Shown here in pieces: positions 554 through 46,000 of a stretch of 64,000 nucleotides of DNA. The translations under genes were made by a program, and so were the position numbers. The first letter of the stretch is position 1; each line of letters opens with the position of its first letter. The notes beneath the pieces are model-generated. The model did no database searches. It saw only the letters and a list, made by a program, of their open reading frames with translations, and was not told the origin of the DNA. The DNA comes from Crossaster papposus (Eukaryota > Echinodermata > Asteroidea > Velatida > Solasteridae): the NCBI GenBank assembly GCA_037893245.1, contig JBAIAA010000412.1:868001-932000 (forward strand), in the 5' to 3' direction.

Positions 554-3500
554 ATGTCAAGACAAGGTGGTCGATCTACAGACCCAAGAAAAGTGGTATG
601 TGCAAATGGTTGGCCATTGATTTTACACGTTTCGTTTTTGGCAAAACGTCGTACATATTTACTGTACAAAGTGTAGTGCAGTGGCTGCTGTCGTTTACTC
701 GAAGTCGAACGCGCGAGGGCGCTGTTTATAATTCACATAAGTTTACACAAACCATGGAGGCTTCTTAATCTTATTCCTCTATGCACAAACCATGCACAAA
801 CTAACGCATTTTCCCAATGTTTAACTTGCTTTACTAAAAGTACAGTTCCTAAGCTATTTTTTATTAAACGTGATTTTGCTAGTTGGTCCCTACTTCCAAA
901 ATAGCAAGGACCCCGTAACGACAATAAATGTGATTTAAATTATGCTTTAAACTATTGCCGTGAAACACCTTATTGTAGCAGTTATAAAATGATCTGTGTG
1001 TTTTTTATTAGTTTTTGTTAATTATTATTTGTTTGATTTGGAACTTAATTTGTATTTGTTTTATACTTTTTTCCCCAAGAGCCAAGAGCTGTTTACCCTG
1101 ACGTATGGATCGCTCGTCTCACAGCTTGTCAAAGATTACGAAAGCGATGAAGAAGTCAACAAACAACTCGACAAAATGTAAAACAGGGAGGGCTGGGGGT
1201 GGATGCACCCAGAAGACACTTAATTTCGATTAATTTAATAACAATTTCATCGGTAATTTGATGTTAGAGACTATTGTCATAACATTGAAGTCAGCTGAAC
1301 AAGTTGAAGAAAACCTTATATTGCCTAAAACCTCAGATTATATTTTTATAAAAATAAAGATCACCCCTAACTTCCTACCCCATTTTTCTTACACATATTA
1401 ACCTAAATCCTGCAAAATCCTGCAATTCCCAAATGTTAAAACTCCATGTAACATGAAGCCTGAAAAATCCCCCAATATTTATTACTGGGGACCACTGCCT
1501 AAATCCTGCAAAATCCTGCAATAAGGTTGTTTCACGTTCCAGTTGCGCATGCTCAGTAGAGCGCCCTCTGTAGGCCTACTACATGTAGGAGAGGGGAACA
1601 CCCATATAAACATGCTATCATCCGGGTAAGTTGCGTACCCCTTTTTGCGCTGAATCCAAGATGGCCGCGGAACGTGAAACAACCTTATGGGTTCACCATT
1701 GAGCTATAAAGCTGCCAAACATGGAACAAACAGCTGCTAAGTGCCCTATTACAACAAGGGTCTGCACACATGACCCTTGGTATGCAAACTTTTCTTATCC
1801 TTGACACATAACTTGCACCTTACTGAAGCTCTATGGAGAATGTACATGTACAATGAGCATGAGCAGTGTGAAAGTACAAAGTAACAAATGACCTCAATCC
1901 TCCAAAATCCTCATTTGGATAAATATCCAAATAACCTCAATTCTGCCAAATCACCCAGCATTTAGTTTAGGCTTTTTGATCTGGATCCTGCATTATCCTC
2001 CAGTGGCAAAACCCCAAAGGGATCAATCCTGCAAATTCCTCTGATGCATCAACTTCCAAGTGCCCTACAAAATTCTGCAATTTGCAAAGAGGATTTTGGA
2101 TGGTTAGGGTTAATATCTTTATTGTTTAATCTGTTTTTATTTTAACTACAGGGGCTATAACATCGGTATTCGTCTCGTGGAAGATTTCTTAGCTCGCTCG
2201 GGAGAAAGAAGGTGCAATGATTTTAGGGAAACGGCGGATATTATAGCAAAGGTGGGATAAACAAATGTTTATTTGTTTAAATTTGAAAAAAAAACAAGAA
2301 CAATGACCCTGGTAATAGCAATAGGCTTTGATGTACAAAGCTACACTAGCAATAGTTATGCAGAGAAAACTTGAAAAAAGGGAAAAAATGAAACAAAAAT
2401 GGTGTTTACTGTTATCTTTTCCAGTCTGGTTTTAAAATGTTCCTGGGCATCACGCCCACCGTTGCCAATTGGAACGCAGCGGGGGACGAGTTCTCTCTCC
2501 TGTTTGACAACAACCCTCTGACGGACTTTGTGGAACTCCCAGAGGAACACGCTCAACTCAACTATTCCAATATCCTGTGCGGGGTCATCAGGGGAGCGTT
2601 AGAGACAGTAAGTCGTGTGGTGTAGTGTCGGGATGTATTTCCAAGGTGGCAGGAGCGGGATTTAAACTGGCGACCTCCGGAATACAGTACCGGTGCTCTA
2701 CCAACTGAGCTATCTTGCCCTATGTACGTGGTGCCGGTCAGTGTCTTTGTTAGGGGTGATAGTCCGAAGTCATAAACCCATAATGCCGTATAGTCAGGGA
2801 TCATGCCCAATTGTACAATAAAACCTGGGAAGCGACATTGTGGGGGTCACTGACAAAAATACAACTTTTTAATTTATAATTTGTCAAACAACCCCGAAGG
2901 GAAACTGACTAGGTAAATTGGACTGATTGAGTACCCGAGTAGAAATAATGCAAACAAATCGTTACTTTCTGGTTTAGTGGAAAACCTTTCGACATTTATA
3001 GCCTTGAAAATCTGGAAACGATATTTAGGCAGCAAGATGCTTTTCTTTGGGATGAAGTTAGGGGGAAATCAACATTAGGGGAGAATGCAAAATTCAACAA
3101 GGGGTTACTTCAGGTTTTACCCTGAGGTAACCCCCAAAAACCTGGTAAACCTTGTAAAACCTTGAGGTAAACCTCAAGTTACCGCCTGCAAAATTTTGCA
3201 TTACTCTGGTAATACCTGGTAAAACATTAAGGTAAACCTCGACTTGCAGACTGTTTAATTTCGCATTACTCTGGTAAAACCTCAGAAAACTGTGAGGTAA
3301 ACCTTGAGTTACCGTCTTTTTAATTTCACAATACCCCAGTAAAACCCAGTAAAACATTAAGGTAAACCTCAAGTTACTGACTGTTTAATTTCGCATTACC
3401 CTAGTAAAACCTGGTAAAACTTTGAGGTAAACCTCAAGTTACTGCCTGTGTAATTTTGCATTCTCTCCTAATTTCCTTTTTTTTTTCTCGTCTTTTGACA

Positions 3501-43000: not shown

Positions 43001-46000
43001 ACCAAGGCCCAAGAACACGCCGAGAGCGACATTGAAGAGTATGAGAACGATCTGCAAGAAATGCTCAGGGTAAGTCCCAACTATTTCTCTGACGACGTTA
43101 TGTATTTCATCTCTGTGCTTCGACGTTTACCAGATAAAATGTACATCAGATTGTTCTGAACAAGGGCTCTTGGTTATGAAGAGTGTTTGAATAACATTTA
43201 TATTGTTAATTGTACAGTGACGTTTGTTTTTTTGTTTGTTTATGGTATACAACTTTAACCTTAACCCCCTAGGCCCTTTTTGCTAGAAAACATCTTCAAT
43301 CCTCCAAAATCCTCATTTTTTTTAAAACCTCATTTTCTGAAAACCCCATTCAGCCTCAATTCTCAAAAATCCTCCACACTTGAAACAACATCATGTGCCT
43401 CAATTCTCCAAAATCCTCATTTTTGTTAATCCTCCAAAACTGCAATGAAGATTTTGGGGATTGAAAAAAGTCAATCCTCCAAAATCCTCATTACGATTTT
43501 TTGAAAACCCAATTCAGCCCCAATCCTCAAAAATCCTCCACACTTAAAACAACATTGTGCCTCAATCCTCAAAAATCCTAATTTTTTAAAAACCTTATAC
43601 AGTCTCAATCCTCAAAAATCCTCCAATACTGCAATGAGGATTTTGGAGGATTGAGGAGCGTTAGGGTTAAGGTGTACTGAGTTCATAAGACCACCGACTT
43701 ACTTACGATTCTTGAGAAAATGGCATTTAAAATCCTAAATTTAAAATTCTAAAAGTGAATATATGACAACATAATAAAAATGGGATGAAATAGGTTTTGA
43801 ATATGTTTGACAGAGGAACACAATTGGAGAAAGGTAAAACAGAACTTAGAGATTTAGGTTAACACGAAAACCAAGAATTGACCACCCCTTCAAAATTTTA
43901 GAATTTGCCGTCTTTTCTGCAAAATGACAGTTGCCGACTTTACACGATTTGTTTTTGTGACGGGCCACATATTTTCTTGTTTGATGCAGTCCTACTTTGA
44001 GTACCTGCACAGCTGGATCCAGATGCTTCAGCGGCTCCCCCAAGCCTCCATCAGTCTCAAGAACATCTTAGATGATGAGTGGGACTTCACCAAGGAGATC
44101 TGCCCCCACGTCAGGGGAGGAGAGGCGCAGGCTGGCAAGAGATTCTGGTAGGTCTCAACATTTTTTTTGAGGCTGGCCTCATTTTTGTTTTATATTTAAA
44201 ACTAGATTCAACATTAGGTTTTTGCCCAAGTCATCTTGTCCATAATGTTACGTCTCAACCCTGCAAGATTGTATACTTTGGGGTTTAGCCCGTAAGATTA
44301 TCGTGTGTCCTTGGGCAAGAAACTTTGCCACAATTTTCTTATCCCAACCTAGGAGTTAAACTGTGGGGGAGATGCTTTTTGTATTTGTTCACAGTTACAT
44401 GACTGCAATCCCTGAACTGAAAAACATTTTACCTTCTTGTCAAGTGATATCGAAGGGTGTAATTATAATTCCTCATTTCAATTTCCATTTCTCACCCCCC
44501 ACCCCCACCCTGTAATACTTTGAAGCCCTTCAGAGCATAGGTATTTTGGCTTCTTGTGTGTGTAATAATCAAATAATATATACAACAAATGTTAAATAAA
44601 GTATTTCAACTGCAATGCGGATAGAACAACACGCAAACAACAAGCATGTTTTCTATGAGTATACGACTCGCACAAAACAAATATTGAATAATTGGTTTTG
44701 GTACGTATCAGCTTCAGTAACGGATTCGTACCAGATTCGATAACGGTTCCATACAAAATACAAATGCCTATATTCAAGAAGCCGTACTTAATTTTGAGTT
44801 GTCCATCTGGTTTGTGTGCACAAACATGATTGCGCCCAGCAGGTTACACTTTGTACGTCAATTTAGCACCCTAGTAATTTATTATAGCTCTATTGTTGTC
44901 CTCCATCTGGAAAAATCTAACACTTTTGATCTCTGGCTGTGCTCTAACCCTAACCACCCTGAGTCCATCAAAATCCATTTCCTGTTTTGGAGGCTTTTAG
45001 CAGATTCAGGATACCTCCATATTGAGTGTGATGGATTGAGGATTTTAAGCCTAGCGTTACTGCAGGAGTTTGATGGATTCAGGATTCAGAAATTTAGGTG
45101 ATGGACTGTGATGGACTCTATGGAGAAACACACTGCAATTTGTTGTATGCCACCGTGGTATCCTGAATCTGCCAGAGTCCATCAACTTTTGCTGGTGGAT
45201 TATTGATGGACTCAGGATATCTCCAGTATGCATACTGGTGGAATCTGATGGATTTAGGACACCAGCAGTTTTTGCAAACCAAACTTGGTGGATTGTAGCG
45301 GATTCAGGATACTTTCTAGAAAAAGCAGTGAGGGGGTTAGGGTTAATCATATGAGTTAATTGGCCGGCTGCCTAGAAGTGCCTTTACGTGCCAGTGGCTT
45401 GATCATGTTGTAGCCACGTCCTTCGCAATTCAGCACCCCAGATGCGAGTAAAGATGATTAGCCTCCCCAATAATTATTATTGTATTTATTAATATTAATT
45501 TTGTTTTGTTTTCGCAGCATCATGGCCAAGAATTTACTCTTGTCCATTGGGGATTATTTGGATGATGGAGTGACTGACGTGAGCTCTAGTCATCAGGATA
45601 GTCAGTCGCATGGAGATACAATGAAGTAAGCAAAAAAAGAAAACGACTTGAAATTATTATTTCTTAAACTTCCAGATCCTTTAAAATACACTAGAAGACA
45701 ATTGCATGAATCTGCTTAGAACGCTGAGGTACTTGCTAAGGTCAGAAGTGATTTGCTATTAAGCACAAAATGGTTTACCAGCCAAACTGTCATAGTATAT
45801 GTACATTGCTTGTGACTAGTGCTCAGCCAATTTATGCTGGACACATACAATTTACTAAGCAATATTTCCTGCATTACAACTCAGTGAAGTTAAGTTTTTT
45901 AATGTTTTGTAGGGTTAACCAGTTCGCGCCGGATGACGTATATAAAGGCAAAGTTTTCCCCAAATTCAAAACGGATGACGCATAAACAATGTCTGTCAGC

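What the first reader, a model, noticed from the sequence alone, without database searches (positions are those of the whole stretch)
1361..45346. Family of TTAA-bounded elements with telomere-like CCCTAAC ends and element-specific word-repeat interiors
At least nine loci (1361-2113, 3775-4261, 18611-19111, 19418-19507, 24410-25132, 32453-32542, 39151-39407, 43261-43670, 44944-45346) end in TTAACCCTAAC-like and GTTAGGGTTAA-like sequence. TTAA plus a CCC-starting inverted terminus is the known signature of piggyBac insertion, so these look like non-autonomous piggyBac relatives, although the ends also read as telomere repeat. The odd part is the inside: each is filled with a short word (AATCCTGCAAAATCC, GATTCAGGATACCTCC, AATCCTCCAAAATCC, CTGCCAAAACCTGCC) repeated on both strands, with the word differing between elements. 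Termini are conserved while interiors look expanded. I do not know of a described family like this.
Basis: partly seen in the sequence, partly recalled or inferred. Interest (0 to 1): 0.75.

Follow-up and report, generated by a model that had tools for sequence, protein, structure and literature searches.

The report
piggyBac-type mini-transposons with phased words
Short non-coding jumping DNA pieces, abundant in this animal genome, share the same two ends and TTAA insertion site while each family carries its own short inner word, often repeated about 43 bases apart, which looks like a family-specific landing site for a piggyBac-type transposase.

Summary
Nine window loci carry TTAACCCTAAC-type ends; facing pairs with at most one mismatch occur in none of 60 shuffles. 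The 1.02-Gb genome holds 13,118 TTAACCCTAACCC matches against 29 for the reversed control. Copies stop matching at TTAA; one related empty site shows one 4-base target without extra bases. These are non-autonomous piggyBac-type elements with two different ends: X, with a CTAGAAA box at fixed distance (4,035 matches, control 1) and the family word near base 40; and Y, with the word near base 15. T. ni piggyBac places its transposase-binding repeat asymmetrically in a comparable way. In four elements interior words often recur at 41-46 bases with unrelated spacers. Repeats at 41-45 bases appear in 5 of 6 autonomous piggyBac families tested here and 5 of 9 CCCTAAC families (6 with a less decayed copy); published piggyBat sites lie 44 apart. 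The words are best read as phased, family-specific transposase sites (inferred). No transposase gene with CCCTAAC ends was found. Element 18611 and the 90-base pair lack repeated words. New variant of a known kind.

The parts
1361..2113 (+). CCCTAAC element, 753 bp, X end left (decayed TCACCCCTAAC), Y end right; words in two runs (about 1404-1518 and 1894-2041) separated by other DNA that includes a nested inverted-repeat pair at 1520-1688
3775..4261 (+). CCCTAAC element, 487 bp, both TTAA intact; X end CCCCCTAGGC..CTAGGAA, Y end word CCAAACCCATCAAACTCCA
18611..19111 (+). Relative of 3775 (77.5% over 276 bp, 70.8% over 144 bp); repeated 9-mers not above shuffles
19418..19507 (+). 90-bp element, both TTAA intact; 96.7% identical to 32453-32542, different flanks
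24410..25132 (+). CCCTAAC element, 723 bp, right TTAA lost; a central inverted repeat (about 24675-24912) is probably a nested element
32453..32542 (+). 90-bp element, second copy of 19418-19507
39151..39406 (-). CCCTAAC element, 256 bp, X end at right (CTAGAAA at about 39373-39379), relative of 44944
43255..43670 (+). CCCTAAC element, 416 bp, X end left (CTAGAAA at about 43283-43289); 11 sites of word TCAATCCTCCAAAATCCTC, 8 plus and 3 minus
44944..45346 (-). CCCTAAC element, 403 bp, X end at right (CTAGAAA at about 45313-45319); 10 word sites, 7 in X orientation and 3 opposite

Best explanation
These are non-autonomous (MITE-like) transposons moved by a piggyBac-superfamily transposase supplied in trans. 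Shown: they are bounded by TTAA, begin CCCT, lie in unrelated flanks, and are built with two different ends. The X end has an 11-base terminus, a spacer ending in CTAGAAA, then the family word near base 40. The Y end has the same terminus with the word near base 15. Also shown: in five or six of nine families sequence repeats at 41-45 bases, about four turns of the helix, and in the four elements examined word by word the spacers have diverged. Inferred: the shared terminus is where the catalytic core cuts, and the word is the family-specific site bound by the transposase's C-terminal cysteine-rich domain. Extra phased copies, in both orientations, would load more transposase dimers and help bring the ends together. 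Families would diversify by changing the word while the cut site stays fixed.
For: Ends and copies; ten copies of the 150-bp family differ 0.7-6.2% from their consensus. Related empty site: L010 flanks against L001, 166 of 209 identical, no gap at the junction, site TGAA in place of TTAA. X box: 4,035 matches against 1 in the reversed control; the gap is 16 or 17 in 89 of the 100 listed although 10-24 was allowed (some of the 100 are units of tandem arrays). X/Y offset: over seven elements, offsets 25 and 24 score 77 and 72 against a mean of 47.4, sd 8.2, over 61 offsets. Spacing: word identity 0.64-0.91 against spacer 0.32-0.35; lag scan; 41-45 band in 7 of 11 autonomous ends and 6 of 14 CCCTAAC segments against 13 of 160 window tiles, Fisher p 2.6e-5 and 1.3e-3; similar over five settings. 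In print: T. ni piggyBac carries a 19-bp internal repeat, the CRD-binding site, in a 35-bp left and a 63-bp right end, and an added site raised integration about two-fold (PMC7351741, passages); piggyBat left-end motifs start at 11, 55 and 99 (PMC11707139, passages).
Against: No transposase gene with CCCTAAC ends was found; only part of the candidates could be examined. The T. ni repeat is a palindrome, whereas several words here are direct repeats of a half-site about 10 bases apart. Offset 24-25 is the single best in 4 of 7 elements (E3775, E43255, E44944, F150), second in E39151 and F452, and not in the top three of F314; of three not pooled, L024 gives 28, E18611 13, E1361 23. The T. ni offset, derived from the end lengths, is 28. 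E3775, F314 and F150 show no 41-45 repeat, nor do 4 of the 11 autonomous ends. The 41-45 band was noticed in these data before it was tested. In piggyBat an extra internal site inhibits rather than helps (PMC11707139, passages). No binding or transposition was measured.
Confidence: 0.72

Rival explanations
1. piggyBac-type MITEs whose interiors are decaying minisatellite-like expansions; the words have no role and their spacing is left over from tandem duplication.
For: TRF finds a period-43 array inside 43255 (43515-43622), and some 43255 spacers share text by eye; X-end units form tandem arrays of about 80-81 bases (L018; starts on C14, C17, C19), so tandem growth does occur; the window is rich in 10-12-base minisatellites; 13 of 160 ordinary window tiles also show the 41-45 band.
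Against: Spacer identity is 0.32-0.35 when units are aligned at the word; unrelated words (44944, 452 family, L002) keep a 42-43 spacing; most autonomous piggyBac families tested in the same genome show it too; words occur on both strands and at X and Y positions.
Confidence: 0.2
2. Kolobok-type elements (also TTAA), for example solo KolobokP terminal repeats of about 450 bp.
For: TTAA target; several elements are 400-500 bp; KolobokP is reported from Branchiostoma and echinoderms with repeats near 450 or 660 bp (PMC9587614, abstract and passages).
Against: Kolobok termini are stated to be 5'-RR..YY-3'; the 9 window elements begin 5'-CC.
Confidence: 0.05
3. Interstitial telomere repeats or telomere-derived insertions.
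For: CCCTAAC reads as telomere repeat; L008 and L087 are telomere-like satellites picked up by the same pattern.
Against: TTAACCC is out of telomere register, the ends face each other, the interiors read here are not TTAGGG arrays (by eye), and families have preferred lengths (ten 150-type copies 144-152; the 452 family 449-452 in four of six copies, 341 and 409 in two).
Confidence: 0.02

Closest known systems
piggyBac of Trichoplusia ni (PMC7351741, passages)
   Same: TTAA target; unequal ends sharing one internal repeat placed close to the tip at one end and further in at the other
   Different: T. ni repeat is a 19-bp palindrome and the right end is 28 bp longer; here several words are not palindromes, the pooled offset is 24-25, families have different words, and some have many internal copies
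piggyBat of Myotis lucifugus (PMC11707139, passages)
   Same: Binding motifs repeated every 44 bp at the left end; published oligos LE44 and LE88 were predicted to hold one and two sites
   Different: Three modules at the left end and a differently built right end; an internal site was inhibitory; autonomous element
CMITE of Acropora (PMC2872659, first of four parts and passages)
   Same: Short TTAA MITEs linked to piggyBac; several families; tandem arrays
   Different: CMITE interiors are conserved and termini vary; here termini are conserved and interiors vary. About 100 bp against 59-753 bp here
Amphioxus MITEs LanceleTn (Osborne 2006; seen only as a reference and a mention)
   Same: Animal MITEs; possible relatives (recalled)
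   Different: Paper not held; nothing compared. The species of this window was not determined

Membership tests
piggyBac superfamily (non-autonomous) | TTAA target, present at both sides | tested here: met
   TTAA on both sides in 23 of 27 tabulated elements; the 18 from genome loci were found through TTAA-bearing patterns, so only the window rows (5 of 9) are free of that bias. Matching between copies stops at TTAA.
piggyBac superfamily (non-autonomous) | Terminal motif CC[C/T]T (PMC2872659, passage) | tested here: met
   CCCT at one or both ends of the 9 window elements
piggyBac superfamily (non-autonomous) | Empty sites with one TTAA and no extra bases | tested here: inconclusive
   One clean site (L010 against L001) but it reads TGAA; a second (L019) is exact at the left and has a 26-base gap at the right in 3 of 4 comparisons. 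No allele could be compared: the tested MEKK4 exon has a single match in the assembly.
piggyBac superfamily (non-autonomous) | Autonomous copy with the same ends and a DDE_Tnp_1_7 transposase | tested here: inconclusive
   Not found; 116 of 1336, 98 of 868 and 63 of 2616 first-look candidates were scored and the flanks of a minority were read
T. ni-type piggyBac ends | Same internal repeat near the tip at one end, further in at the other | tested here: met
   Pooled peak at offset 24-25 over seven elements; individually best in 4 of 7; differs from T. ni's 28
T. ni-type piggyBac ends | Internal repeat is a palindrome bound by the CRD | tested here: not met
   Words such as TCAATCCTCCAAAATCCTC are not palindromes (by eye); binding not testable here
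MITE | Short, non-coding, many copies of similar size | tested here: met
   871 matches to an X-end pattern whose 100 listed places are all of the type shared by the 150-bp and 553-bp families; ten 150-type copies 144-152 bp. Elements were not scanned against Pfam.
Kolobok / KolobokP | 5'-RR..YY-3' termini | tested here: not met
   Termini are 5'-CC..GG-3'

The most novel reading that the evidence does not exclude
The piggyBac superfamily uses a common ruler: transposase sites set about 43 bases (four helical turns) apart, read by an array of dimers, with the site's sequence free to change. The CCCTAAC families are natural variants of that rule: one fixed cut site and X box, many interchangeable address words, so that new families arise by changing the address alone, possibly served by one or a few transposases, of which the four T. 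ni-like open frames without recognisable ends are candidates.
Probability: 0.4. Interest if true: 0.72.

Novelty: new variant of a known kind. Interest (0 to 1): 0.52.

Why it matters
It gives a natural series of ends in which the cut site is constant and the inner site varies. That lets one ask which part of a piggyBac end decides which transposase moves it, and whether a fixed spacing of sites is a general requirement. The ruler can be tested in any genome with piggyBac elements.

Tried and rejected
Telomere and Kolobok readings: rejected on register and termini. Minisatellites as offspring of the words (AAGTCCATCAT at 4461, AGTCCCCGCA at 25661 look similar): the array edges were printed, no CCCTAAC ends were seen there, not pursued. 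Allelic empty sites: the tested exon has a single match. Autonomous partner: the piggyBac families whose ends I could place end in TTAACCCTTTCA, TTAACCCTTTGC or TTAGC, TTAACCACTTGG, TTAACACTTTGA, TTAACCCTATCA or TTAACCAGTTCG, none CCCTAAC; for L029, L074 and L075 no matching ends were placed. T. ni-like frames L060-L063 have no CCCTAAC ends of their own in the stretches read; L062 carries a CCCTAAC end facing away, inside the 3' end of its open frame. Flanks read at C470 and C219 hold none. Plain counts of repeated 9-mers: not distinctive against this window. In print: searches listed no description of these elements or of a general 43-44-base rule that I recognised from titles and abstracts; that covers only the held open library, not Repbase.
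Full report
WHAT WAS CHECKED. The window is animal DNA (a TRAPP-family exon and MEKK4 sequence) and lies at C412:868001-932000 of a 1.02-Gb assembly of 1,841 contigs. The species was not determined. Facing pairs with at most one mismatch are absent from 60 dinucleotide shuffles. Genome-wide, TTAACCCTAACCC occurs 6,152 + 6,966 times against 6 + 23 for the reversed pattern. 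Not all are elements: among 20 of the 100 listed places fetched, one (L087) is telomere-like satellite, as is L008, and L007 is of another make.

THEY MOVE. The two 90-base copies are 96.7% identical and their flanks differ. The 150-base family was compared at ten places, 144-152 bases long, 0.7-6.2% from their consensus (L025 was left out because its flanks duplicate those of L023). Further families of about 314, 452 (341-452), 487-513 and 553 bases have the same ends. The flanks of L010, joined at one TTAA, match an element-free stretch in L001 at 166 of 209 bases with no gap at the junction; the site there reads TGAA, and the match is broken further out by a longer insertion in L001. L019 gives a second, less clean case with 26 bases missing on the right in three of four comparisons.

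TWO DIFFERENT ENDS. Read inwards, one end (X) has TTAACCCTAAC, a variable spacer, CTAGAAA, then the family word at about base 40; the other (Y) has the word at about base 15. The box is not universal: E1361, E24410, the 90-base elements and the 452 family lack it, and 3775 has CTAGGAA. TTAACCCTAAC-N(10-24)-CTAGAAA occurs 1,512 + 2,523 times against 0 + 1 for the reversed pattern, and 89 of the 100 listed have a gap of 16 or 17 with differing spacers; some listed places are units of tandem arrays. Comparing X and Y of one element in seven elements, offsets 25 and 24 stand highest (77 and 72; mean 47.4, sd 8.2). E39151 and E44944 are one family, and F150 and F314 look related, so these are about five independent families. 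Same-element scores at offsets 24-26 are 16, 19, 14, 11, 14, 10 and 13 of 19; X of one against Y of another averages 10.95, the best such pair 15. Against: F314 has no such peak in its top three; L024 gives 28, E18611 13 and E1361 23.

PHASED WORDS. With a word taken from each element's own ends, sites at 13 of 19 or better number 11 in 43255, 10 in 44944, 10 in 1361, 5 in 39151, 7 in the 452 family, 4 in 3775, 3 in 18611 and 2 in the 150 family; shuffle means are 0.09-0.66 (I chose the words from the ends, so the end sites are expected). Distances between successive chosen words in 43255, 44944, 39151 and 1361 are 60, 44, 71, 49, 42, 43; 50, 42, 95, 38, 42; 62, 42, 45; and 50, 46, 394, 43, 45, 41. 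Words are 0.64-0.91 identical, spacers 0.32-0.35. A scan without chosen words peaks at lags 40-47 (14.5 hits per lag, 6 of 10 segments), with a second rise at 84-94 (9.3 per lag, 8 of 10); lags of 129-133 and 173-175 occur in single elements beside others that are not multiples, such as 65, 96, 104, 149 and 164.

SAME SPACING IN TRUE piggyBac ELEMENTS. Ends of autonomous piggyBac elements of this genome show lags of 43 (L032, L031, L072), 41-43 (L076) and 44 (L056); L045 does not, and neither does the second end of L032, L072 or L056. L029, L074 and L075 could not be tested because their ends were not placed. Of twenty 5-lag bands only 41-45 stands out in both sets: 7 of 11 autonomous ends and 6 of 14 CCCTAAC segments against 13 of 160 ordinary window tiles (86-90 is second for CCCTAAC, 5 of 14). 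The band was noticed in these data before it was tested, and ends of one family are not independent. By family, 5 of 6 autonomous and 5 of 9 CCCTAAC families are positive; a less decayed copy of the 24410 family (L090) makes it 6 of 9 (the script lists L090 and E24410 as two rows, 6 of 10). Over five window and threshold settings the CCCTAAC count stays the same, the autonomous count is 5 of 6 in three and 4 of 6 in two, tiles are 7-13 of 160 or 161, and the best other band reaches 3 or 4 of 16. Among the 20 further half-ends, five (L079, L081, L083, L090, L097) pass, four of them from families already used; many of the rest are of the short 150-base type.

READING. In T. [quoted passage not shown] the ends are 35 and 63 bp and, with the native enzyme, only the unequal pair both excised and integrated in cells; an added site raised integration about two-fold (PMC7351741, passages). 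In piggyBat the left-end motifs start at 11, 55 and 99 (PMC11707139, passages), 44 apart. The simplest account is that the words are family-specific transposase sites set about four helical turns apart, behind a common cut site. Function is inferred; nothing here measures binding.

WHAT IS MISSING. No CCCTAAC-ended transposase gene was found. The searches score only the best candidates and few flanks could be read, so absence is not shown. Four open frames 36-37% identical to T. ni piggyBac (L060-L063, of which L060 and L061 are 97% alike) and a partial fifth (C219) have no CCCTAAC ends of their own in the stretches read; whether they serve these elements is open.

Noticed in passing
L078 (G000:C863:310000-319900); also C669, C592, C430, C61, C80: A 503-aa piggyBac transposase family recurs at about 11-12 kb in tandem (eight copies on C863), and a 505-aa family does so on C80. 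Between two copies on C863 lie an ORF with a Parvo_NS1-like helicase match (E 1.3e-5) and one with a weak Rep match below cut-off (E 0.018); no Rfam match. Perhaps piggyBac joined to a rolling-circle replicon. Described only.
   Followed up: partly
L018 1-1490; C14:259868-260867; C17:2906925-2907119; C19:8887-9971: X ends of the 3775 family form tandem arrays with a unit of about 80-81 bases.
   Followed up: partly
window 45915-46136: Another TTAA element with TTAACCAGTTCGCG ends; the same 14-base ends bound an autonomous piggyBac in L076.
   Followed up: partly
window 55347-55741: Element with 28-base inverted ends TTAAAGGGATCGTATACG; TTAA followed by purines suggests Kolobok.
   Followed up: no
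window 7238-8418, 4461-4735, 14652-14798, 25661-25945, 57133-57623: Many 10-12-base minisatellites, for example 93 copies of ACAGACTCGCC.
   Followed up: no
window 15659-16078, 26597-26947, 37316-38649, 53299-53933: Recurrent inverted ends of the type CATATGTGACCTGTCACCACAAAATGAGCG: another terminal-inverted-repeat family.
   Followed up: no
L011 1654-1712: A 59-base CCCTAAC element, nearly a hairpin, abutting a 148-base one at TTAATTAA.
   Followed up: no
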